From NCBI RefSeq assembly GCF_028368935.1, contig NZ_JAQNDK010000003.1, positions 1,116,001 through 1,180,000 on the forward strand: DNA of 64,000 bases, written 5' to 3'. The position numbers and the translations under genes were made by a program. Origin of the DNA: Sorangium aterium (lineage in GTDB: Bacteria > Myxococcota_A > Polyangia > Polyangiales > Polyangiaceae). Below are positions 48,269 to 61,722 of the stretch, piece by piece. The notes beneath the pieces were generated by a model. That model ran no database searches. It was not told where the DNA came from and saw only the letters and a program-made list of their open reading frames with translations. Each line of letters starts with the position of its first letter. The stretch's first letter is position 1.

Positions 48269-49351
48269 CTAGCAGGGAACCGGCGGCGGGCGGCTCCCGA
48301 GGTCGGCGGGAGATGCCGAGTCGCCGGTGTCCTGCTGCGGTGTCTGCCGCAGCGGTGACAGCGAGCTCCGCGCCCAGCGCCTGACCGCGGCGTCCGGCCA
48401 GGGCTGCCACCGCGGGCTGGCCTGCGGCGCGCGGGCCGCCGTGGCGGATGCGCGCGGGGCGCGCGCCCCGGTGCGCAGGCGCGGCGCGGGCCGCGGCTCG
48501 TCGAGGAACCGGAGGAGATCGGGGGCGAGATCGCTCACCGCTTCCCGGTGCGGGTAGTGCCCCGCCTTGGCGAAGCGGCGCACGGCCGCGCCTTCGATGT
48601 AGCGGTCGATGTCCGCCGCGTGGCGCGCCGGGATCACCTGGTCGCGCTCGCCCCAGTAGACGGCGAGCGGCGGTATCTCCGGGAGCCGATGAGCGATGTC
48701 CATGAGGTGATGGCGCTGGCCGCGCAGATCGATCGCGTGGCGGAGCGTGCGCGACAAGGCGCGCGCCGTGCCGGGCCGCGCGTTCATCCTGGCGAGGTGC
48801 CTGCGCTCTTCCGCGTTGAAATCGCCGCCGAGCACCAGCACGCCCGCGTGCGTGCCGACGCCCATGAGCAGCGGCGCGGCCAGCTCGATCAGCCCGGTCA
48901 CGGCGGCGAGGCGCAGCGGCAGCGCGACCTCGGTCCCGATGCCGCCCGCGGCGACCAGCCCGACGCGGTGGATGCGCCCTGGCCGCTCGGTGGCCACGCA
49001 CATTGCAATGCTGCCGCCGAACGAGTGCCCCACCAGATCGAAATCGCCGAGCCGGAGGGCACGGATCCATTCAGCGACCACGCCCGCATACCACGCGACC
49101 GTATAGGGCGCGTCGGGCCGCGCCGAATCGCCATGGCCGGGCAGGTCGAGCGCGACGACCCGGCGCCCTGCCGCCGCGAGCGCGGGGGCGAGGCGGTTCC
49201 AGGTCCGACAGCTATCGGACAGGCCGTGTACGAGGACCACGGGGCGCTGGTCCGCGCCGCCGTTCCGGGAGGGGGTCCACTCTTGCCAGTGGACCTCGCC
49301 AGCAGAAAGGACGCGAACATGGCTGCGACACGTGACCGACATGTTCTTCAT
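48269..49351 (-). CDS. Alpha/beta hydrolase
   Basis: From ATG 49351, 360 residues. The fold is shown by PVVLVHGLSDSCRTW (oxyanion region), VVALDLPGHGDS, the nucleophile elbow LVGHSFGGS with Ser110, YWGERDQVIP for the acid and a His in the KAGHYPHREA segment. Together these fit epoxide-hydrolase/haloperoxidase-like esterases. The C-terminal 90 residues are Arg/Ala/Pro-rich and probably disordered. An alternative start is ATG 49342. The first 110 codons and about 325 bp upstream are duplicated at 56378-57055, where the copy is broken. Confidence 0.85.
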   Translation of the reverse strand: MKNMSVTCRSHVRVLSAGEVHWQEWTPSRNGGADQRPVVLVHGLSDSCRTWNRLAPALAAAGRRVVALDLPGHGDSARPDAPYTVAWYAGVVAEWIRALRLGDFDLVGHSFGGSIAMCVATERPGRIHRVGLVAAGGIGTEVALPLRLAAVTGLIELAAPLLMGVGTHAGVLVLGGDFNAEERRHLARMNARPGTARALSRTLRHAIDLRGQRHHLMDIAHRLPEIPPLAVYWGERDQVIPARHAADIDRYIEGAAVRRFAKAGHYPHREAVSDLAPDLLRFLDEPRPAPRLRTGARAPRASATAARAPQASPRWQPWPDAAVRRWARSSLSPLRQTPQQDTGDSASPADLGSRPPPVPC

Positions 49352-49675
49352 CAAGAGTTCGCACGAAGTGCCGCGTCTGTCCAGATTGCACGGCTTCGAT
49401 GGGGAGCTCGGGGGGACGCCGCGAAGCGTGCTTCGCGCCCAGTGTAGGTTTTGCAGCGCCAGCGTACGCCGCACTGGGCACATTCGAGTGGTCCCCGGAG
49501 GGCGGCCGCCCTGCCTCCTCCCTGGCTTGGCGTGTGCTTGCCGCAGTCGGCCGCTTTGTCATCCCACCTCGGTGCTGCGTTCGATGCCCTGGCCGGGCCG
49601 CCCTGCTGACGCACGGACAGAATTAAACTTCATGGTTACTTGTTGACATCGCGCTCTACTTGAGACGAGTCTCAC
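48985..49675. repeat. Long direct repeat, copy A (hydrolase 5' part plus upstream region)
   Basis: This segment recurs in the same orientation at 56378-57055 with high similarity through the coding part and more indels upstream. It covers the first 121 hydrolase codons and the region up to a shared GACGAGTCTCACCGC / GAAGAGTCTAGCCGC motif. The rest of the 49352-50380 gap holds the broken gene at 49895 and nothing else recognised. Confidence 0.85.
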
Positions 49676-49894
49676 CGCATCGGAAGACATACGCTGGCGG
49701 GCTTGCTCTGTTGTGAGAGCGAACGCTGTTTCCACGCGCGCCGCGGGGGGGCGGTTCTGGAGGCTGAGGGAATACAGGTATGCCCTGCGCCAGATCCGAC
49801 GCGCTGGGTGACTCCGTCATATGGGCATCATTCCCCAGGAGTGGCCGAATCGACATGATGCGATCTTCCAGCCGGCGCCCCCAGGCTGCGCATC

Positions 49895-50380: not shown

Positions 50381-50746
50381 ATGACCGAGATGCGAGACCT
50401 CGAGAGAGATTCACAGGATGAGCGGGCGATGCTGCTCGAGGCGGCTGACGCGGCGACCTCCGCGCGCCGCGCCGTCCGTCACGTTCTCGAGGGGCTCGAA
50501 TCCATCATCGCGCTCCGCGCCTCCGCCGGAAGCGCGCAGGACATCCATCGCGTGCGGAAGCTGGTCGACGATCTCCGCGCCGCGCGGAGGTCGGCGGGCA
50601 TCTCGTTGCGTGCGGCGCAGCGCACCGCGGACGGCGCGCTCCACGCGCTCGGCGGGGAGTCGCCCGGCGATCGAGCGCGGACTCGAGCCCGCGACCGCGC
50701 CGAGCTGAACGGCGGGCACAGCTCGCACCGTCGACGGATCCGGTGA
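50381..50746 (+). CDS. Small helical protein upstream of the KaiC-like operon
   Basis: A 121-residue soluble product from ATG 50381 (or ATG 50390), rich in Ala, Arg, Glu and Leu and likely to form a long antiparallel helical hairpin (LLEAADAATSARRAVRHVLEGLE, IHRVRKLVDDLRAARRSAG, given here in short blocks). The C-terminus is basic. There is no recognised domain, the ribosome-binding site is poor, and codon use beyond residue 90 is Arg-heavy, so the gene may be shorter or not real. If real, it lies 150 bp ahead of the operon and could supply a small partner. Confidence 0.4.
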   Translation: MTEMRDLERDSQDERAMLLEAADAATSARRAVRHVLEGLESIIALRASAGSAQDIHRVRKLVDDLRAARRSAGISLRAAQRTADGALHALGGESPGDRARTRARDRAELNGGHSSHRRRIR

Positions 50747-50896
50747 GCGTCCCGAGCGCAAACGCCGCGAGCGTCCGGCCTGAAGCGCGAGCGCCATGGC
50801 GACGCTGCCCGCGCGCGGCGCCCAGATCGAGCGCGCGATGCGACACCGGCATGAACATTGCCCCTCCCCGGCGACTGTCGAGGCGACGTAGCGCCC

Positions 50897-51376
50897 ATGC
50901 GTGACGCGAACGAGCACAGCGCCTGCGTGGACGCCTGGATGGATCGGGCAGCGCAGGGCGCGCCGCCCGACCGCCTCGTCCAGCTCTTCGAACGAGCGTT
51001 CAACGCCCTGTGGCGGCGCGCCCACGTCACCCTCGGGGAGGTCACGCTCGGCGCCATCGTGGATCGCGTGCTCTACTATGCCTGCGAGCGATACCCGGTC
51101 CTCTCGTCGCTCAGGATGGAGTCGGCCGGGATCTGCTGCGTGGCGCTCCAGGAGCGCGCCGGGGGCGTGCGTCGCGACCAGATCGAGGAGGGGCTCCGGT
51201 TCATCCTGGTGGAGTTCCTCACGGTCCTCGGAAACCTGACGGCGGAGATCCTCACGCCGGCGCTCCACGCGGAGCTCTCGAAGGTCGCGCAGGAGGAGGC
51301 GGGCGGGATCGAGAGAGCGTCGGAGAGCGCGCCCGGGATCTCCGAGGGCGAGGACGGCGAGGAAGTGGAGACATGA
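50897..51376 (+). CDS. Small acidic protein translationally coupled to the KaiC-like gene
   Basis: From ATG 50897, 159 residues. A helical body (RLVQLFERAFNALWRRAHVTLGEV, AIVDRVLYYACERYPVLSSL, IEEGLRFILVEFLTVLGNLTAEIL) is followed by an acidic tail ending GEDGEEVET. I recognise no family; it is not KaiA or KaiB. Its TGA overlaps the ATG of the KaiC-like gene by 4 bp (ATGA), so the two are made in step and it may be a dedicated partner or adaptor. The longer open frame from 50858 adds 13 residues without a better ribosome-binding site. Confidence 0.7.
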   Translation: MRDANEHSACVDAWMDRAAQGAPPDRLVQLFERAFNALWRRAHVTLGEVTLGAIVDRVLYYACERYPVLSSLRMESAGICCVALQERAGGVRRDQIEEGLRFILVEFLTVLGNLTAEILTPALHAELSKVAQEEAGGIERASESAPGISEGEDGEEVET

Positions 51377-53544
51377 CGAAGAAGACGGCCATCGCGCGCA
51401 TCGAGACGGGGGTGCGAAACCTGGATGCGCTGTTCGGGGGGGGGCTGCCGAAGGGGTCGATCGTCGTCATCGCCGGCCCGCCGGGCGCGGGCAAGACGAT
51501 CCTCACCCAGCAGATCTGCTTCCACAACGCCTCGGCCAGGACCCGGGTCCTCTACTTCAGCACGCTCTCGGAGCCGACCGCGAAGACGCTGCGCTACCTG
51601 AATCAGTTCGACTTCTTCGACGCCGGGAAGATCGACGGGGGAATCCAGTTCGTCGACCTCGGCGCCATCCTCCGGACGAAGGGCCTCGACGGCGCCTTTC
51701 GGCTCGTCATGGATCACGTCAAGAAGGTCAAGCCGTCCATGGTCGTCATCGACAGCTTCAAGGTCTTCGACGACCTCGCCAAGTCCAAGGAAGAGCTCCG
51801 GAAGTTCGGCTACGAGCTCGCGATCAACCTCATGGCGTGGGAGACCACCACCTTCTTCCTCGGAGAGTTCGGGCAGAGCGACATCGAGACCAACCCGCTG
51901 TTCTCGATCGTCGACGGGCTGATCATGATCAACCAGCGCCAGGAGTCCGGCGAGCAGCGGCGGGTCATCCAGATCGTCAAGATGCGCGGCACCGACCACA
52001 GCCGCGAGGAGCACTCGTTCGCCATCACACGGGCCGGCATCGACGTGTTCGCGCCCCGCTTCACCATCCACCGGGCGGCTGTCGAGGGCAAGGAGCCGCG
52101 CCTCAAGACGGGCATCTCGAGGCTCGACGAGCTCCTCGGAGACGGGATCCCGCGTGGCTCCACCCTCCTCATCGCCGGCGTGGCGGGGACCGGCAAGACG
52201 GTGCTCTCGCTCGAGTTCATCTACCGCGGCGCGAAGGCCGGCGAGAAGGGGATATTCTTCTCCTTCGAGGAGAGCGAGGCGCGGCTGCGCGCCACCGCCC
52301 GTGGCCTCGGCTGGGACCTCGACGCCGAGATCGAGCGCGGGATGGTCGAGATCGTCTTCATCCCGCAGCCCGACATCCTGGTGGAGGGGCACCTGCTCAT
52401 GATCAGCGAGCGGATCCTCGGCATGAAGGCGCGGCGCGTGGTCGTCGATTCGGTCTCGGTCTTCCTGCACAAGGTCAGGGACCCGCAGGTAGACCGAGAG
52501 AAGGTCTTCCAGCTCGCCAGCGTCATCCACAACGCGCAGGCGGTCGGCTTCCTCGCCACCGACATCCCCTACGGCACCAACCAGATCAGCCGCTTCGGCG
52601 TCGAGGAGACCGTGGTCGACGGGGTCATCCTCCTCTCCTCGACGGAGGAAGGGCTCGAGCGCCAGCGCTACATCGAGATCTACAAGCTCAGGAACACCGC
52701 CCACCTCAGGGGCCGGCACAGCGTCCTCATCGGCCCGGGCGGGCTCATCGTCTATCCCCGTTACAACGCGGAGGCGGCGTTCGGCGAGCCGCCGCCCCCC
52801 CTGGACACGGCGCGGCGCCTGCCCTCCGGCGTGCCCGGGCTCGACGGGCTGCTCGGCGGAGGGCTGCTCGAGCGCAGCGTCACCCTCCTCTCCGGGAGCG
52901 CGGGCATCGGGAAGAGCACCCTGTCGATGCAGTTCCTCCTCGAAGGCTGCCGCCGCGAAGAGCCGGGGCTCTACCTCGCCCTCGAGGAGGGGCCCGCACA
53001 GCTCATCAGGACCGCGGAGGCGCTGGGGCTGCCGCTCCAAGAGGCGATCGAGAAGGGGCTCGCCGAGGTCATCTATCTCTCGCGGGAGCGCGTCCGCCCG
53101 AGCCAGTTCCTCTCGCTCCTGACCGACAAGATCCGCACGCAGAAGACGCGTCGATTCGTCCTCGACAGCGTGAGCCACCTCGCGGCCGAGGGCATCGCGG
53201 AGGACGAGCTGCGGCAGCTTCTCTACGCGCTGATCACGCGGTTCAAGGCGCTCGGCGTGACTACCGTGCTCACGCTCGAATCGAGCGCGATGTACTCCAG
53301 CGAGACCGTCACCGACCGCAGGTTCTCTCCGGTGGCCGACAACCTCGTCGTGCTCCGGTACACGCCCATGCCGGGCGAGATCCGGCCGACCCTCATGGTC
53401 GTGAAGACGCGCGGCAGCGAGCACGATTTCGGCGCCTACCACTTCATCGTGGGGAAGGGCGGCGCCCGGATCGGGCGGCGCGCTGACCTGGGTGCCCCTC
53501 TGGCGGCGAAGAACATCGAGCGCCGGAGGCGCACGAAGAAATAG
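51373..53544 (+). CDS. KaiC-like ATPase with three RecA/KaiC domains
   Basis: The 723-residue protein contains three consecutive KaiC domains, each about 235 residues, where cyanobacterial KaiC has two. Walker A motifs are GPPGAGKT (35-42), GVAGTGKT (about 269-276) and GSAGIGKS (about 508-515); Walker B strands are MVVIDS, RVVVDS and RFVLDS. The catalytic Glu pair after the second strand is present in domains 2 (FSFEES) and 3 (LALEEG) but replaced in domain 1 (FSTLSEP). KaiC-like ATPases act as ATP-driven timing or signalling switches. It is coupled to the small gene before it, and the histidine-kinase gene starts 9 bp after its stop, suggesting a signalling pair. No kaiA or kaiB is seen. Confidence 0.9.
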   Translation: MTKKTAIARIETGVRNLDALFGGGLPKGSIVVIAGPPGAGKTILTQQICFHNASARTRVLYFSTLSEPTAKTLRYLNQFDFFDAGKIDGGIQFVDLGAILRTKGLDGAFRLVMDHVKKVKPSMVVIDSFKVFDDLAKSKEELRKFGYELAINLMAWETTTFFLGEFGQSDIETNPLFSIVDGLIMINQRQESGEQRRVIQIVKMRGTDHSREEHSFAITRAGIDVFAPRFTIHRAAVEGKEPRLKTGISRLDELLGDGIPRGSTLLIAGVAGTGKTVLSLEFIYRGAKAGEKGIFFSFEESEARLRATARGLGWDLDAEIERGMVEIVFIPQPDILVEGHLLMISERILGMKARRVVVDSVSVFLHKVRDPQVDREKVFQLASVIHNAQAVGFLATDIPYGTNQISRFGVEETVVDGVILLSSTEEGLERQRYIEIYKLRNTAHLRGRHSVLIGPGGLIVYPRYNAEAAFGEPPPPLDTARRLPSGVPGLDGLLGGGLLERSVTLLSGSAGIGKSTLSMQFLLEGCRREEPGLYLALEEGPAQLIRTAEALGLPLQEAIEKGLAEVIYLSRERVRPSQFLSLLTDKIRTQKTRRFVLDSVSHLAAEGIAEDELRQLLYALITRFKALGVTTVLTLESSAMYSSETVTDRRFSPVADNLVVLRYTPMPGEIRPTLMVVKTRGSEHDFGAYHFIVGKGGARIGRRADLGAPLAAKNIERRRRTKK

Positions 53545-53553
53545 GGGGAGGGG

Positions 53554-56295
53554 ATGAGCGCTGGCCGCCGGACGAAGGAACCGCCGAGAGCGCACCAGAA
53601 AGGGGCGAGGCGCGACGACGCGCGCGGCGAGCAGGAGCCGGCGCGGCGCGGCGGCGAGGATCCGGCCGCCGGAGGCCTCGAGCGCGCGTCCCCTCGCGTC
53701 CTGTACCTCTACGAGATCAGCAAACAGCTCACGCGCTTCGAGAGCGCCGAGCGGACGGCCCCGTCGGTCCTCACGACCCTCGCGCGGGCGCTCCCCATCC
53801 GCACCGCGCTCGTCCTCCTGGAGGTCCCGGGTCGCCCCGGGGTCAAGACCATCGTCTGGAGCGCCGAAGGTGTCGGCGCCGATCGACTCCAGGCAACCAG
53901 GTCCCATGCCGCGACCTCGTACGCTTACCTCACCGGCGCGGAGGCCACGCGGCCGGCCGATCTGGACGGCGAGCCGACCGCGACGAACGCGCCCTCCGGA
54001 CAGCCTGCCGGGGCTCCGCGGGCCGAGGCAGAGGAGCGCGGGAGCTTCCTCGTCCTCCCTCTCGTCATCGACCGCGGGCCGATCTTCGGCGTTCTCCAGA
54101 TCGAGGGCGCCGCCCGTCTGGAGGAGCCGGATCTCGTGTTCATGAACGCGGTGGTCAACCAGCTCGCGATCGCGCTCGATCGCCAGGCGATCATCGACGC
54201 CAAGCAGGCGGCCGCGGAGGCGGCGCGAGCAGCGGCCCAACGGAGGCAGGCCGAAGCCGACGAGCAGCGGGCCCTCGCCGAGGCGCTGCGGCAGCGTTAC
54301 GAGGCGCTCGTGGACAACCTCGCTCGATCGTTCGTCTGGGAGGCCGACGCGCGCACGCTCCAGGTCCTCTACGTGAGCGCGCAGGCCGAGGAGCTCCTCG
54401 GCTATCCGCGCGCGCGGTGGCTCGCGGAGCCCGACTTCTGGAGCCGCTGCACCGAGCCGGACGATCGCGGCGAGCTCGATCAGGCGCTCCGGAGGACGCT
54501 GGCCGCCGAGCGGGACCAGCGCTGCGACCATCGCTGTCGGACGGCGGACGGTCGCGTGCTCTGGCTCCACAGCGGCGTGCACCTGGTGAACGACAGCGCC
54601 GGCGCGCCTCGGCTTCAAGGCGTCTCGATGGACGTCACTCCCGCGAAGGAGGTGGAGGCGAGGGTCCGTGAGCAGCTCGAGTTCACGCGGGCGGTGACCG
54701 GCAGCATCGGCGAGGGCGTGCTCGCGATGGATCGCGAAGGGCGGATCACCTTCTTCAACCCCGCGGCCGAGCGCTTGCTCGGCTGGACGACGGAGGAGGT
54801 CGTGGGGCGGCGCGTCCAGGAGGTCGTCCAGATTCGACGCGCGGATGGGACGTCCGTACCCGACGAGGATCACCCCGCGCTGCGGGCGATCCGCACGGGC
54901 GAGCCGGTCCGGAGCGACGAGGACGTGGTTTCATGTCGGGACCGAGCGCCCTTGCACGTCAGCTGCACGTTCGCCCCTCTGCAGCGAGCAGGGCAGGTCT
55001 CGGGGGCGGTGCTCGTCTTCCGGGATATCATGGATGTGAAGCGAGCCGAGCAGGTGCAGCGATTGTTCGCGGAGGTCAGCGCGGTCCTCGCCTCCTCGCT
55101 CGACTACGCGGAGACGGTCTCCTCGGTGACGCGCCTGTCGGTGCACGCCCTGGCCGATCTCTACTTCGTCGACCTGGTCGACGAGAACGGCCGTGTCGAG
55201 CGCCTCGAGCCGACGTCCGCCGATCCCGCGAAGCAACGGCTGACCGAGCGGATGGAGGATTTCGCCCAACGACCGGGCAGGGAGACCCCGCAGGCGAAGG
55301 TGATGCGGACCGGCGAACCGCTCCTCATCCCTGAAATCACCGAGTCTGCCGTGGGGGCCGCCGCCCACGATCCGGGCCATCGAGGGTCCCTCCGCGCAGG
55401 AGGCTCGGGAGCGGTGATGGTGGTGCCGCTCGTGGCCCGCGGGCGGACGCTCGGCACGCTCACGTTCGTGACGACGGAGCCGAGCCGCCGCTACTCCGCC
55501 GCTGATCTGGCGGTGGCCGAAGAGGTGGCGCGCCGGGCCGCCATGGCCGTGGAGCATGCGCGCCTGTACCAGCACGCGCAGCGCGCCATTCGCACGCGGG
55601 ACGATTTCCTCGCCATCGTCTCTCACGACCTCAAGAACCCGTTGAGCGCCATCTTGACGGCCGCGGCTCTCCTCATGCGGACATTGCCGGCCGACGAGCA
55701 GGGAGCGCACGACAGGAGGAAGGCCGAGGTCATTCTCCTCGCCGCGCAGCGGATGCTCCGGATCATCGGCGATCTGCTCGACGTCGCCGCCATCGAGGCG
55801 GGTCGGCTGTCGATGGAGAAGCGGGGGCACGCGGCGGGCGCGCTCGTCCGCGACGCGATCGAGATGGAGCAGGCGCTGGCGACGCAGAAGCACCTGGTGC
55901 TGGAGGGCGAGATCCGCGGCGGGGGCGGCTTCGAGGTGCTCTGCGATCGCGAGAGGGTCCTCCAGGTCTTCGCGAACCTGATCGGCAATGCGATCAAGTT
56001 CACCGCGGAGGGAGGGGCCATCACGGTCCGAGCGGAGCCACGTGGCGACGAGGCGCTCTTCGCCGTGGCGGACACGGGGGCGGGGATCCGCGCCGACGAG
56101 CTCCCTCACATCTTCGATCGTTTCTGGCAGGTGGCGGAGACCGCGCGTCTGGGGACCGGGCTGGGGCTCACCATCGCGAAGGGCTTCGTGGAGGCCCTCG
56201 GCGGGAGGATCTGGGCGGAGAGTCAGTTCGGCGCTGGCGCCACGTTGTTCTTCACGCTCCCCCTCGCCCGGCCGGAGGGCGCCGCTGCCGGGTGA
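53554..56295 (+). CDS. Cytoplasmic histidine kinase GAF-PAS-PAS-GAF-HK paired with the KaiC-like gene
   Basis: From ATG 53554, after GGGGAGGGG, 913 residues. The order is a GAF domain (about 50-215), a coiled coil, PAS (about 248-365; EELLGYPRARWL), PAS (about 375-490; GEGVLAMDREGRITFFNPA), GAF (about 505-670), HisKA (IVSHDLKNPLSAI, His691) and HATPase (NLIGNAIKFT, DTGAGI, GTGLGLTIAKGF). There is no membrane helix and no receiver domain. It is 9 bp after the KaiC-like gene, so certainly in one operon. The kinase fold is complete, but its stop codon (TGA 56293-56295) falls inside the repeated AI-2E fragment, so a longer C-terminal tail may have been lost. Confidence 0.9.
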   Translation: MSAGRRTKEPPRAHQKGARRDDARGEQEPARRGGEDPAAGGLERASPRVLYLYEISKQLTRFESAERTAPSVLTTLARALPIRTALVLLEVPGRPGVKTIVWSAEGVGADRLQATRSHAATSYAYLTGAEATRPADLDGEPTATNAPSGQPAGAPRAEAEERGSFLVLPLVIDRGPIFGVLQIEGAARLEEPDLVFMNAVVNQLAIALDRQAIIDAKQAAAEAARAAAQRRQAEADEQRALAEALRQRYEALVDNLARSFVWEADARTLQVLYVSAQAEELLGYPRARWLAEPDFWSRCTEPDDRGELDQALRRTLAAERDQRCDHRCRTADGRVLWLHSGVHLVNDSAGAPRLQGVSMDVTPAKEVEARVREQLEFTRAVTGSIGEGVLAMDREGRITFFNPAAERLLGWTTEEVVGRRVQEVVQIRRADGTSVPDEDHPALRAIRTGEPVRSDEDVVSCRDRAPLHVSCTFAPLQRAGQVSGAVLVFRDIMDVKRAEQVQRLFAEVSAVLASSLDYAETVSSVTRLSVHALADLYFVDLVDENGRVERLEPTSADPAKQRLTERMEDFAQRPGRETPQAKVMRTGEPLLIPEITESAVGAAAHDPGHRGSLRAGGSGAVMVVPLVARGRTLGTLTFVTTEPSRRYSAADLAVAEEVARRAAMAVEHARLYQHAQRAIRTRDDFLAIVSHDLKNPLSAILTAAALLMRTLPADEQGAHDRRKAEVILLAAQRMLRIIGDLLDVAAIEAGRLSMEKRGHAAGALVRDAIEMEQALATQKHLVLEGEIRGGGGFEVLCDRERVLQVFANLIGNAIKFTAEGGAITVRAEPRGDEALFAVADTGAGIRADELPHIFDRFWQVAETARLGTGLGLTIAKGFVEALGGRIWAESQFGAGATLFFTLPLARPEGAAAG

Positions 56296-56740
56296 CCCAG
56301 CTCGCGATCGGCGAAGAGATGGCCGCGAGCGCGACGCCGAACAGCACCGGCACGAAGAACGGCTCCGCGTAGCGCACGGTGGCCACACACATTGCAATGC
56401 TGCCGCCGAACGAGTGCCCCACCAGATCGAAATCGCCGAGCCGGAGGGCACGGATCCATTCAGCGACCACGCCCGCATACCAGGCGACCGTATAGGGAGC
56501 GTCGGGCCGGGCCGAGTCGCCATGGCCGGGCAGGTCGAGCGCGACGACCCGGCGCCCTGCCGCAGCGAGCGCGGGGGCGAGGCGGTTCCAGGTTCGACAG
56601 CTATCGGACAGGCCGTGTACCAGGACCACGGGGCGCTGGCCCTCGCCGCCGTTCCGGGAGGGGCTCCACTCTTGCCAGTGGACCTCGCCAGCAGAAAGCA
56701 CGCGAACATGGCTGCGACACGTGACCGACATGTTCTTCAT
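56252..56740 (-). pseudogene. Chimera of hydrolase 5' part and AI-2E transporter fragment
   Basis: From the equivalent of ATG 49351 (here 56740) the product follows the hydrolase for about 121 codons, including GHSFGGS. At 56378 it switches abruptly to YAEPFFVPVLFGVALA and SWVTR, which belong to the N-terminal helices of the AI-2E protein. It then runs into sequence antisense to the kinase end and stops at 56252. The hydrolase acid and His are missing, so it should be inactive. The 86-bp AI-2E piece (56292-56377) corresponds to 44929-45014. Confidence 0.85.
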
Positions 56741-57055
56741 CAAGAGTTCGCACGAAGCGCCGCATCTGTCCAGATTGCACGGCTGAGATGGGGAGTTCGG
56801 GGGAGGGGCGCCGCGAAGCGAGCGTCGCGTCCAGTGTGGGTTTTGCAGCGCCGGCGTACGCCGTGCTGGGACGTGGAGCGGACCGCTGCCAGGCATCTGC
56901 CCTGACCCGGCATGCCCCTGCCGCCCTTTGCCGCCTTGTCGCCTCGGTGATGCGCCCGATGCCCTGGCCGGCCGCCCCAACTGGCGCACGGACAGAATCC
57001 GTGCCCCTGATTACCCATTGACGCCACGCTCGACTGAGAAGAGTCTAGCCGCGCC
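56378..57055. repeat. Long direct repeat, copy B
   Basis: This is the counterpart of 48985-49675 in the same orientation. Copies A and B bracket about 6.7 kb containing the small genes, the KaiC-like gene and the histidine kinase. Between 57056 and 57142 nothing is recognised except the run-in to the next gene. Confidence 0.85.
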
Positions 57056-58805: not shown

Positions 58806-60356
58806 CTACTCAGGGAAGCGCAGCGTCTCCACGGCGACGCCAGCCTCTCCCGTCGTCATGGTGCCGTCATGGCTCCAGCTCGTGCCGCCTGGGCCCGGCA
58901 GGCCCAGCTCGAAGGTGACCCCCTCCAGCGTGAGCTGGTCTTCGTCGAGGTAGGCGATCCCGATCACGTCGCCGCCGCGCCCGGGGCCGCCGTAGCCGCC
59001 GTCGCCGCCGTCACCGCCGCGGCCCCCCTCGCAGGCCCGCGCTCCGTCGCGGCCGTCGCCGCCCGGCGCGCCTCGTCCAGGTTCGCCACCTTGCTGGGGC
59101 GGCCCTCCGTGGCCTCCCCGCCCGCCGGCGGGCGCCTCGATGACGCTGTCCCGGACCGTCACCCTGGCGTGCAGCACAGCGAGGCCGATCGACGGCGAGC
59201 CGTTCCCGCCGCCCCGACCCCCTCGGCCGCCACAACCCCCGGCGCCTCCAGAGCCGCCGCTGGCCCCTCCCTTGTCCGCCGCCGTGCACACGGCGAGCCC
59301 GCCGCGCCGGCCGCCGCCCCCGCCTCCACCCTGGCCCGGCGTGCCCCTGCCGCCGTCCGTCCCCTTGTCGCCCTCCCATCCCGTCTCGGTGAGGCGCCCG
59401 ATGCCCTGGCCGGCCGCCCCCACCGTTCCCGGGGACCCGGAGAGCCCGGACCGACCGTTCTCGCAGACGCTGTCCTCGCGCTCCGCGTCGCCGCCGAGGC
59501 CTGAGTACGGGTCGGACGCCGGCACCGGGTCACCGGTGTCCCCGTCCTCGGCCCGCGCGGGAAGCCCGTCACCGCCTTTGCCACCGGTGCTCGACGTTCC
59601 GTCGTCACACGGGTTCGTCACCGCCGCGCCCCCGGGGATCGTCGCGACGGAACACCCGTCCTCACCGAACAGGCCATCGGGGCCGGCCGGTGCTCGGCTC
59701 GGCCGCCACTCTTCCCCGTCGTGACCCGCCCTGCCGCCGTAGAGCGCCCTGATCTGGCTATGGACGATCTCCACCGCGGTGTTGGACTGAACGAGCACCC
59801 CGATTTGGACCCCGCTCTGGATCCACAGGTGATCGAGCGTCGAGACCCCGTCCGCGGCCCCCGTGTCGCCGGGGCGTGCCGGCTCGACGATCACCGCGAT
59901 CCGCGCATCGGTCTCCGAGTTGATGTGGCCGTGGCTGTCGCTGCTCCGGCGCCGCCATTCGAGGAAGTCGAAGCCGGCATGGATGTCCACGCCGGAAGGA
60001 AGCCTGATCGCCCCCACGAAGTTATCGGTGGGCATGAACACGCGACCGCGCGCGGTGCGAGCGAGCTCGATCGCCCGCTGGACCGAGCGAACCGGCCGGC
60101 CCTTCGTGCCGGGGTTCGCGTCGTTTCCGTCGAGGATCTCGCTGTTGACGAACACCCCGCAGCCGTCCATCGCGCGATCCGCGGCGAGTTCCTCGAGGCA
60201 CGCCGACTCCGGGACGGCATCGCCCGGACAGGCGGACGGAGCGTCGCACGGCGGTGCGCCGCCCGGCCCGTTCACCTCCGGAGAGTTCCCGCAACCGGCC
60301 ATGGCGAGCGCTAGGACGACGAACGGAAGGAACACGGACTTCGCGCGCATGGGCAT
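58806..60356 (-). CDS. Glycine-rich (PGRS-like) lipoprotein with beta-helix features
   Basis: A 516-residue lipoprotein (signal MRAKSVFLPFVVLALAMAGC when read from the second ATG, 60350). After a DANPGTKGRPVRSVQRAI segment, the form seen at the start of DUF1565/parallel beta-helix proteins, come strand pieces such as VQSNTAVEIVHSQI, LHARVTVRDSVIE and YLDEDQLTLEGVTF. These alternate with long Gly-rich stretches (GGSGGAGGCGGRGGRGGG and similar). A right-handed beta-helix with glycine-rich loops is the best guess. It is followed closely by a similar gene on the same strand. Confidence 0.75.
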   Translation of the reverse strand: MPMRAKSVFLPFVVLALAMAGCGNSPEVNGPGGAPPCDAPSACPGDAVPESACLEELAADRAMDGCGVFVNSEILDGNDANPGTKGRPVRSVQRAIELARTARGRVFMPTDNFVGAIRLPSGVDIHAGFDFLEWRRRSSDSHGHINSETDARIAVIVEPARPGDTGAADGVSTLDHLWIQSGVQIGVLVQSNTAVEIVHSQIRALYGGRAGHDGEEWRPSRAPAGPDGLFGEDGCSVATIPGGAAVTNPCDDGTSSTGGKGGDGLPARAEDGDTGDPVPASDPYSGLGGDAEREDSVCENGRSGLSGSPGTVGAAGQGIGRLTETGWEGDKGTDGGRGTPGQGGGGGGGRRGGLAVCTAADKGGASGGSGGAGGCGGRGGRGGGNGSPSIGLAVLHARVTVRDSVIEAPAGGRGGHGGPPQQGGEPGRGAPGGDGRDGARACEGGRGGDGGDGGYGGPGRGGDVIGIAYLDEDQLTLEGVTFELGLPGPGGTSWSHDGTMTTGEAGVAVETLRFPE

Positions 60357-60399: not shown

Positions 60400-61527
60400 C
60401 TAACGGGGCAGCTCGCTCGGCCCGCTGAACGCCTGGGTCTCCGCCGAAGGACCGGAACCGCCTTTGCCAGCCACATCCAGCGTGGCGGCGTTCCCCGCGA
60501 GGCCGCCCTCGCCAGCCGGTCCGACCTTGATCACGGCGCCGGGCCGGAGGGCCAGGTTGGGGACCACGTACGCGACGCCGACGGACGGGCCGCCGAGCCC
60601 GCCGCCGGCGTCTCCTCCGCGGCCGCCATTGCCTCCATAGCCGCCATGGCAGGCGTCCCACATCCCGGCCACGAACCCCTTGCCACCGTACCCGCCGTGC
60701 TTGCCGAAGCCGCCCGGTTGGCCCGTTCCGCCGGTTCCCCCGTTCCCGCCGCGGCCCGTGAACACGTCGGTGGCCTCGAGCGTGAGCTCCGTGCCCTCGA
60801 GCGCCACGATGCCGATGCTCGCGCCGCCGTACCCGCCGCCCTTGCCGCCCAAGCCACCGCAGCCGCCGCCGCCCCCCGAGCCGCCGGCCGCCCCGGTCTG
60901 GGGTCCGGAGGCCGGGCACACGGGGGGACTCACACCGTCGCGCGACTTGCTTCCGCCCCCGCCGCCCCCGGCCTGGCCGACGCCGCCCCGGTCCCCGTCG
61001 TCACCGCGGACGCCGATCCACCCATCGTCGGTGAGATAGCCAATGCCGGCTGCTCCGCCGGCGCGGCCACGGTCCGCGCCGGGCGCGCCATCTTTCCCGT
61101 CGCTGCACGCCATGCTGCCGGCGCCGGCTCCTCCGAGGCCCTTGCCGTCGGGGTTCGGTGCGGGCTCGGGCTGCCCCGAAGCGCCGTCGCCGCCCTGCTC
61201 GATCCCGCCGTCGCCCCCGTACCCGCCCGTCGACTCGATGCCCTCGCCGCACGCGGTCACGACCGGGAGGGCGCCCGTCGCGGCGCCCTCCGTGCAGGCG
61301 TCCGCCCCGTCGTTCCCGAACTGCCCGCTCTGCGCGCGGGCGCTCGACGCGTCCTCGCCGGGCTCTCCCTCGCACGGTCCGGGCGGCGGCTCCGGATCCG
61401 GAGCGCACGTGCGCGTCTCCCAGCAGGCATCGGAGTACGTGCACGCGGTCGATGTGGTTGCGCACCACGCGCAGAGCGCAACAGCCACGACGGACGCTCC
61501 CCTGGTGGCTTTGTCCCCGTCCCTCAT
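60400..61527 (-). CDS. Second glycine-rich (PGRS-like) lipoprotein
   Basis: From ATG 61527, 375 residues. The signal ends in a lipobox-like CATTSTAC. Cysteine-containing segments near the start (YSDACWETRTC) give way to a long glycine-rich body with periodic strand-like pieces (GIGYLTDDGWIGV, SIGIVALEGTELTLEATDVF, SVGVAYVVPNLALRPGAVI) comparable to those in the downstream gene. The two are probably paralogues, 43 bp apart, and form an operon of surface lipoproteins. The role is unknown; an adhesion or matrix role is a guess. Confidence 0.72.
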   Translation of the reverse strand: MRDGDKATRGASVVAVALCAWCATTSTACTYSDACWETRTCAPDPEPPPGPCEGEPGEDASSARAQSGQFGNDGADACTEGAATGALPVVTACGEGIESTGGYGGDGGIEQGGDGASGQPEPAPNPDGKGLGGAGAGSMACSDGKDGAPGADRGRAGGAAGIGYLTDDGWIGVRGDDGDRGGVGQAGGGGGGSKSRDGVSPPVCPASGPQTGAAGGSGGGGGCGGLGGKGGGYGGASIGIVALEGTELTLEATDVFTGRGGNGGTGGTGQPGGFGKHGGYGGKGFVAGMWDACHGGYGGNGGRGGDAGGGLGGPSVGVAYVVPNLALRPGAVIKVGPAGEGGLAGNAATLDVAGKGGSGPSAETQAFSGPSELPR

Positions 61528-61722
61528 TCCGCGTGCACGGTAGTTGCGCGTGCCGCGCGGCGTCAACCAGCAGGAACGGCATCAAGGATGCAATTGCCCG
61601 TGGAAAATGTCTCTCGATAACGCAATGCGGCCCGCCGGTCAGTGGTGTGTGCGGGCCTTTCGCTTCCGGCGGGCGCTCGATCCTTCCACTGCAGCGGAGC
61701 GACACCGCGCCGTGACGCGTGC

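What the first reader, a model, noticed from the sequence alone, without database searches (positions are those of the whole stretch)
50381..56295. Three-domain KaiC-like ATPase with a coupled small protein and a GAF/PAS histidine kinase: candidate undescribed signalling module
An acidic 159-residue orphan overlaps the start of a KaiC-like gene by 4 bp, and a 913-residue cytoplasmic histidine kinase starts 9 bp after it. KaiC normally has two RecA-type domains; this one has three. KaiA and KaiB are absent, so the classical oscillator is not present. KaiC is established to signal through a partner histidine kinase (SasA) in cyanobacteria, so the pairing suggests an alternative ATPase-to-kinase switch with the small protein as adaptor. 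The role is inference.
Basis: partly seen in the sequence, partly recalled or inferred. Interest (0 to 1): 0.8.

Follow-up and report, generated by a model that had tools for sequence, protein, structure and literature searches.

The report
Three-domain KaiC operon with partner protein
A three-gene signalling operon, made of a small partner protein, an unusual three-part version of a clock-type ATPase and a sensor kinase, is kept together in a scattered set of myxobacteria, which makes it a testable new variant of a known way for cells to couple ATP use to signalling.

Summary
A 159-aa protein (50897-51376), a 723-aa KaiC-family protein with three ATPase domains (51373-53544) and a 913-aa cytoplasmic GAF/PAS histidine kinase (53554-56295) form a tight operon. 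The "orphan" is no orphan: divergent relatives sit directly upstream of two-domain KaiC genes in other Myxococcota and in Caballeronia; no Pfam or NCBIfam family matched them. The triple KaiC is a hybrid: an N-terminal domain of the type found with the small protein, then a canonical clock-like CI-CII pair. Upstream of related KaiCs the same slot can hold KaiB or a receiver protein, so the small protein is probably a KaiC regulator. KaiB is absent genome-wide. KaiC beside a histidine kinase was described in 2011 (Ramlibacter), and kinases lie near many KaiCs, so this is a new variant of a known kind; the searches made found no description of the three-domain form with this partner. Protein contacts, ATPase activity and kinase control are inferred, not shown.

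The parts
50897..51376 (+). Small KaiC-partner protein (SP), 159 aa; helical core about residues 4-138, acidic variable tail 139-159
   Evidence: homologues upstream of KaiC
51373..53544 (+). Three-domain KaiC-family ATPase, 723 aa
51379..52080 (+). Domain D1 (about residues 3-236): CI of the type found in SP-associated KaiCs; Walker A and B kept, first catalytic Glu replaced (TLSE)
52099..52776 (+). Domain D2 (about residues 243-468): canonical clock-like CI, both catalytic Glu kept
52813..53487 (+). Domain D3 (about residues 481-705): CII type, both catalytic Glu kept; Ser652 = S431 equivalent, Pro653 = T432 equivalent
53554..56295 (+). Cytoplasmic histidine kinase, 913 aa (GAF-PAS-PAS-GAF-HisKA-HATPase_c)
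53749..54177 (+). N-terminal GAF domain of the kinase, preceded by a conserved LYEISK-type helix; conserved in the module, not found by tblastn in the 43 other KaiC loci searched
55597..56268 (+). HisKA and HATPase_c core of the kinase

Best explanation
The three genes encode a KaiB-independent, KaiC-centred signalling unit. Shown by sequence: the operon is inherited as a unit in Myxococcota; the KaiC combines an SP-type CI domain (D1) with a clock-type CI-CII pair (D2-D3); D2 and D3 keep their catalytic residues, D1 has lost one; the slot upstream of KaiC is occupied by SP, KaiB or a receiver protein in different KaiC lineages. Inferred: the protein assembles as a three-tier hexamer (KaiC is an established double-ring hexamer); D2 and D3 run the ATPase and perhaps autophosphorylation at Ser652; D1 is mainly an ATP-binding docking ring; the coupled SP binds D1 and, as KaiB does in clocks, regulates KaiC or reports its state; the kinase senses the KaiC-SP complex through its constant N-terminal GAF region, adds its own PAS/GAF inputs, and phosphorylates an unlinked response regulator.
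For: Conservation: in a class sample of 289 genomes SP matches 11 (own genome and one weak match included); triple KaiC was seen in 9, all 9 SP-positive. Over 18 compared loci only the SP, KaiC and kinase clusters recur in more than 3 loci. Stop/start overlap in KaiC's frame in 15 of 17 module loci and 13 of 20 two-domain SP genes. SP-KaiC link: with an SP profile built from module members only, the 5 best non-module hits among 3202 ORFs are all ORFs just upstream of a KaiC, and 13 of 19 overall (59 such ORFs in all; hypergeometric p 2e-9 and 2e-19); profile-profile comparison E 1.9e-7, probability 93.7. D1 link: D1 falls in a 39-row set with 18 SP-associated CI domains and 12 others (SH-aLRT 98) and shares their one-residue insertion and changed catalytic pair. 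Slot logic: KaiB upstream of clock-type KaiCs L089 and L090, receiver proteins upstream of L098, L100, L101, L102 and L109. Output: same-strand kinase core downstream in 14 of 17 two-domain SP loci, diguanylate cyclase in two Caballeronia plasmids. It is the only multi-domain KaiC in the genome, and KaiB was not found.
Against: No interaction, complex model or activity was tested. The SP fold has no convincing PDB match, so no binding mode can be read off. The kinase N-terminus is not KaiB/SasA-like. T432-equivalent is Pro in 13 of 13, so the two-site cycle of clock KaiC is unlikely. A kinase near KaiC is not special to SP loci: 10 of 23 surveyed loci without recognised SP also have a same-strand kinase core downstream. 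No gene fusion of SP with KaiC or kinase was found; apparent long frames were not conserved. The kinase core is missing from the third gene's frame in L018 and L057, and most of KaiC is missing in L057. The 39-row set that holds D1 also holds 12 CI domains without recognised SP, so SP is not obligatory for that domain type. SP of Caballeronia found no plasmid relatives outside that genus.
Confidence: 0.5

Rival explanations
1. A KaiA/KaiB-free timer (hourglass): triple KaiC slowly hydrolyses ATP and autophosphorylates at Ser652, and the kinase reads that phosphorylation state; SP only tunes it.
For: D2 and D3 keep both catalytic Glu and the S431-equivalent Ser is present in 13 of 13. A KaiC-HK hourglass was proposed for Ramlibacter, with kaiC and HK cotranscribed (PMC3164672, passages). 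Full-length CI-CII KaiCs had kinase activity even without kaiA or kaiB (PMC5520375, passage).
Against: T432-equivalent is Pro in 13 of 13, KaiB was not found, and no timing phenotype is known to me.
Confidence: 0.2
2. SP and KaiC form the functional pair, and the kinase is a cotranscribed passenger or one of several interchangeable outputs with no direct contact.
For: SP-KaiC adjacency is broader than the kinase: diguanylate cyclase in two Caballeronia plasmids, no kinase core found in L058, kinase not same-strand downstream in 3 of 17 two-domain loci; the kinase middle region varies between loci.
Against: The kinase N-terminal region recurs in the 16 module loci whose contig reaches it, split by the inversion in L020.
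Confidence: 0.2
3. The genes sit together only because of shared transfer in a genomic island and do not form one pathway.
For: The module is patchy (11 of 289 genomes with SP) and here lies in a ~12 kb stretch without alignable counterpart at the syntenic site of three same-genus genomes.
Against: No other neighbouring family recurs in more than 3 of the 18 loci compared; order, strand and overlap are conserved over large divergence.
Confidence: 0.1

Closest known systems
KaiC-histidine kinase operons without KaiB (Ramlibacter tataouinensis Rta_04330/04340 type; PMC3164672, passages seen)
   Same: KaiC followed directly by a histidine kinase, no KaiB; there shown to be cotranscribed. A figure legend there also lists KaiCs with an S-P pair at the phosphorylation site
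   Different: Their kinase N-terminus is reported to resemble KaiB/SasA; here it is GAF. The passages seen name neither a third KaiC domain nor a small partner gene upstream (supplementary figures not seen)
Cyanobacterial KaiABC-SasA clock
   Same: D2-D3 align end to end with solved KaiCs; a histidine kinase output
   Different: Extra N-terminal domain, no KaiB found in the genome, T432 replaced by Pro, kinase without recognised KaiB-like domain
Archaeal KaiC-family signalling hubs with small 'death domain-like' proteins (Makarova et al. 2017, not held; cited in PMC5847659, passages seen)
   Same: Small protein gene beside KaiC (Thermococcus plasmid: NitrOD5 protein overlapping KaiC)
   Different: No similarity of SP to that one NitrOD5 protein; SP lies upstream, NitrOD5 downstream
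Two-domain SP-KaiC loci of Myxococcota (this work, L071-L087)
   Same: SP upstream of KaiC; same-strand kinase core downstream in 14 of 17
   Different: Two domains only (CI of D1 type plus CII); this module's kinase N-terminal region was not found there

Membership tests
KaiC family ATPases (PF06745) | RecA-type KaiC domain with Walker A and B | tested here: met
   Three PF06745 stretches, whole-protein E 4.2e-132; Walker A and B kept in all three domains of 13 of 13 sequences
Circadian clock KaiC (TIGR02655 equivalog) | Score above the curated cut-off | tested here: not met
   374 bits against a cut-off of 546.25. The broader NCBIfam model NF006799, also named circadian clock protein KaiC, is passed (514.4 against 408)
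Circadian clock KaiC | Two phosphorylation sites S431 and T432 | tested here: not met
   Ser kept, Thr replaced by Pro in 13 of 13
Circadian clock KaiC | KaiB partner in the genome | tested here: not met
   No PF07689 match in the genome; Synechococcus control rings
SasA-type output kinase | N-terminal KaiB-like domain | tested here: not met
   N-terminal 240 aa give only GAF families at E <= 0.01
KaiC-HK operon (Ramlibacter type) | kaiC directly followed by a histidine kinase gene, no kaiB | tested here: met
   9-bp gap; KaiB not found
KaiC-HK operon (Ramlibacter type) | Kinase N-terminus resembling KaiB/SasA | tested here: not met
   GAF only
KaiC-HK operon (Ramlibacter type) | Cotranscription | not testable with these tools
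   Inferred only from overlap and spacing
Archaeal death domain-like KaiC partners (NitrOD5 type) | Homology of the small protein | tested here: inconclusive
   hhalign probability 0.5 against a single NitrOD5 sequence; only one sequence tried; PF11537 did not appear in the Pfam scans

The most novel reading that the evidence does not exclude
SP founds an unnamed family of KaiC regulators that takes the place of KaiB in a separate bacterial KaiC lineage, and the triple KaiC is a three-ring machine made by fusing that lineage's SP-binding ring onto a clock-type KaiC, giving a third way, independent of KaiA, KaiB and SasA, to couple a slow ATPase to a phosphorelay.
Probability: 0.35. Interest if true: 0.75.

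Novelty: new variant of a known kind. Interest (0 to 1): 0.58.

Why it matters
How KaiC signals outside cyanobacteria is largely open. A conserved operon that gives KaiC, a candidate regulator and a kinase together makes the question testable with three soluble proteins. The hybrid origin of the three domains also predicts which domain the small protein should bind, and a three-tier ring; the solved KaiCs listed were matched over D2-D3 only.

Tried and rejected
Fold of SP: two AlphaFold models (single sequence, mean pLDDT 82.1; with 11 sequences, 84.5) gave no Foldseek match at E <= 0.001. The best VIA-align row (an apolipoprotein, Z 7.0) is in the range common for helical bundles, so no family is claimed or excluded.

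Gene fusions of SP with other domains: three long frames (L078, L081, L084) looked like fusions, but the upstream parts of L081 and L084 are not conserved between them; L078 was judged by eye.

Anti-phage defence: PADLOC matched only P-loop stretches of KaiC (best mad8, E 5.4e-17 over residues 258-314) and nothing in SP or the kinase. Plasmid search with SP of the window: no match; with SP of Caballeronia: 3 records, all Caballeronia. A profile search in a phylum sample matched 4 of 377 genomes, all known. Pfam's EccA1 match of SP (E 0.035, below cut-off) is chance-level.

Distance correlation between SP and the KaiC domains (r 0.93-0.95, 11 loci) fits common inheritance but does not single out D1, so it is not used as evidence for contact. 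The overlap count (16 of 17, 30 of 37) did not check the frame; one search did and replaces it.

Limits of the counts: one search scored at most 3 candidates a genome and its list is cut, so 9 is the number of triple KaiCs seen. The 40 other KaiC loci were picked from the ranked list, not at random. SP was recognised by iterated profile in 16 of these 40, in a search of the upstream ORFs only (59 sequences), plus L074 (first-round E 0.044 in the full ORF set; outside the 60-nt window used later; then seen by eye). The domain tree left out six module loci and all single-domain fragments; it has SH-aLRT support only, no bootstrap. The gene finder was trained on the window's own three genes and missed at least the L012 kinase, which tblastn found. 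The kinase cluster also holds unrelated kinases by single linkage; kinase adjacency rests.
Full report
WHAT IS THERE. Three genes lie on the + strand: SP (50897-51376, 159 aa), a KaiC-family ATPase (51373-53544, 723 aa) and a histidine kinase (53554-56295, 913 aa), with a 4-bp ATGA overlap and a 9-bp gap. Pfam finds three KaiC domains in the ATPase and GAF, PAS, PAS, GAF, HisKA and HATPase_c in the kinase. The ORF at 50381-50746, where the finding begins, has no family and no match in the related loci. In the own genome PF06745 gave five matches: the three domains of this protein and two partial ones (26.9 and 25 bits, about 75 positions) elsewhere, which I did not identify further. KaiB was not found in the genome.

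IS THE UNIT CONSERVED. SP matched 11 of 289 genomes of the class sample, counting the own genome and one weak match (G249, 23% identity). Triple KaiC was seen in 9 of the 289: 6 as full-length matches of at least 57% identity, 3 split or cut (G165, G170, G234); all 9 carry SP (one search scored at most 3 candidates a genome and its list is cut). The tenth strong SP genome, G158, keeps only a remnant of KaiC beside SP. A scan of public genomes for SP gave 10 loci, among them Myxococcus and Corallococcus species. Three of these (L012, L013, L020) appear, from matching hits, to be the same genomes as G146, G170 and G165, so I count 17 module loci with the window. KaiC is one three-domain frame in 13, frameshifted in L013, broken and internally inverted in L020, cut by a contig end in L055 and mostly missing in L057. 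The third gene's N-terminal region follows in the 16 loci where the contig reaches it, split by the inversion in L020. The kinase core is present in 12 of those 16, cut by contig ends in L021 and L056, and absent from the reading frame in L018 and L057. Clustering the predicted neighbours over 18 loci (the 17 plus L058) found only the SP, KaiC and kinase clusters in more than 3 loci; the kinase cluster also holds unrelated kinases. The SP stop overlaps a start codon in KaiC's own frame in 15 of 17 module loci and in 13 of 20 other SP genes.

THE SMALL PROTEIN IS A FAMILY. Module SPs share a conserved core with many invariant positions. A profile built from module SPs only was run against the ORFs of the surveyed KaiC loci. 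The five best non-module hits were all the ORF just upstream of a KaiC, and 13 of 19 overall, although such ORFs are 59 of 3202. Iteration over the upstream ORFs recovered SP upstream of KaiC in 16 of the 40 surveyed Myxococcota loci, in both SP positions of L058 and in a Caballeronia plasmid (L069); L074 is a weaker seventeenth. The other 23 of the 40 gave no recognised SP. Profile-profile comparison of module SPs with SPs of the two-domain loci gives E 1.9e-7 and probability 93.7. No member of either group matched a Pfam family above its cut-off (11 and 18 members); the 18 and the window SP matched no NCBIfam family. Of seven plasmid KaiC loci fetched (L068-L070, L144-L147), three, all Caballeronia, have SP; in two of these SP is annotated as a hypothetical protein, overlaps KaiC by 4 bp and is followed by a diguanylate cyclase, and in the third KaiC is split over two frames. 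L070 and L146 show no small gene annotated just upstream; L145 carries no annotation and was not examined. AlphaFold models SP as a helical domain with a small beta hairpin and a low-confidence acidic tail.

THE TRIPLE KaiC IS A HYBRID. A tree of 115 single domains puts D2 with canonical and cyanobacterial CI domains, D3 with CII domains, and D1 with the CI domains of SP-associated and related two-domain KaiCs (SH-aLRT only). An independent sign agrees: D1-type CI domains mostly carry a one-residue insertion and S, G, A or V before the second Glu of the E-E catalytic pair, while D2 and D3 keep E-E. All three domains keep Walker A and B in 13 of 13 sequences. In D3 the S431-equivalent Ser is kept and the T432-equivalent is Pro in 13 of 13. 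In each of the 40 surveyed Myxococcota loci the KaiC frame gave two domains; L098 has a further single-domain frame. In L058 a KaiC with SP has D1- and D2-type domains only, followed by a separate single-domain KaiC-like gene. [quoted passage not shown]

THE PARTNER SLOT. Immediately upstream of KaiC lies SP in the SP lineage, KaiB in two clock-type loci (L089, L090) and a receiver-domain protein in five D1-type loci (L098, L100, L101, L102, L109). Other surveyed loci have none of these recognised. Since KaiB is an established KaiC regulator, the position suggests the same for SP. This is an argument from position, not a demonstration.

THE KINASE. The constant parts are an N-terminal GAF region with a conserved LYEISK-type helix and the kinase core; the middle varies from nothing to PAS-PAS-GAF. 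This N-terminal region was not found by tblastn in the 43 other KaiC loci. A same-strand kinase core downstream of KaiC is seen in 14 of 17 two-domain SP loci and, as comparison, in 10 of 23 surveyed Myxococcota loci without recognised SP (my count), so a kinase near KaiC is common in itself. The region downstream of the kinase was not scanned for a response regulator, so the output is unknown.

HISTORY. The operon lies in a stretch of about 12 kb with no alignable counterpart at the syntenic site in three same-genus genomes: their alignments run to 49.4-49.5 kb, resume at 61721, and hold 1.9, 4.0 and 2.0 kb in between. A copy of the neighbouring hydrolase-like gene's 5' part (48984-49678) recurs after the operon (56373-57052, 86%), about as diverged as copies from other species, which suggests recombination with a relative (inference).

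WHAT IS KNOWN. KaiC genes beside kinases, including a cotranscribed pair proposed as an hourglass, were described in 2011 (PMC3164672, passages seen); that paper states that almost all non-cyanobacterial kaiC genes lie near signalling genes. A 2024 census of myxobacterial KaiCs (PMC11832031, abstract, outline and passages seen) reports 1-7 kaiC genes per genome, most with one or no phosphorylation site, and in the passages seen no three-domain KaiC or small partner. Searches for three-domain or tandem KaiC descriptions (listings only) and for KaiC with myxobacteria showed no title or abstract start naming this unit; most subscription papers and the 2017 archaeal KaiC survey are not held. In archaea small helical proteins are linked with KaiC (PMC5847659, passages), so the theme of a small partner is known there; SP showed no similarity to the one archaeal example tested.

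VERDICT. A real, conserved operon and a new variant of the known KaiC-kinase kind, with an unnamed partner family and a hybrid three-domain KaiC. Mechanism is inferred; confidence 0.5.

Noticed in passing
window 48984-49678 and 56373-57052: Direct repeat (86%) of the 5' part of an alpha/beta-hydrolase-like gene on both sides of the operon; the ~12 kb between 49.5 and 61.7 kb has no alignable counterpart in three same-genus genomes.
   Followed up: partly
L058 6480-11328: Tandem of two SP-KaiC pairs plus a single-domain KaiC-like gene; the second KaiC has D1- and D2-type domains only, a possible step towards or away from the triple form.
   Followed up: partly
L020 7143-9015: About 1.9 kb inverted between KaiC D1 and the kinase N-terminus; real rearrangement or assembly error.
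   Followed up: no
L018 8606-11230: Third gene keeps about 140 residues of the kinase N-terminus, then runs into unrelated sequence; assembly join or insertion.
   Followed up: partly
L098, L100-L102, L109 upstream of KaiC: A receiver-domain protein stands where SP would be upstream of D1-type KaiCs.
   Followed up: partly
L144, L147 (Caballeronia plasmids): SP-KaiC followed by a diguanylate cyclase: a different output enzyme beside the same pair.
   Followed up: partly
window 58806-60356 and about 60460-61371: Glycine-rich proteins of a family with dozens of copies in this genus (51 matches in the own genome).
   Followed up: no
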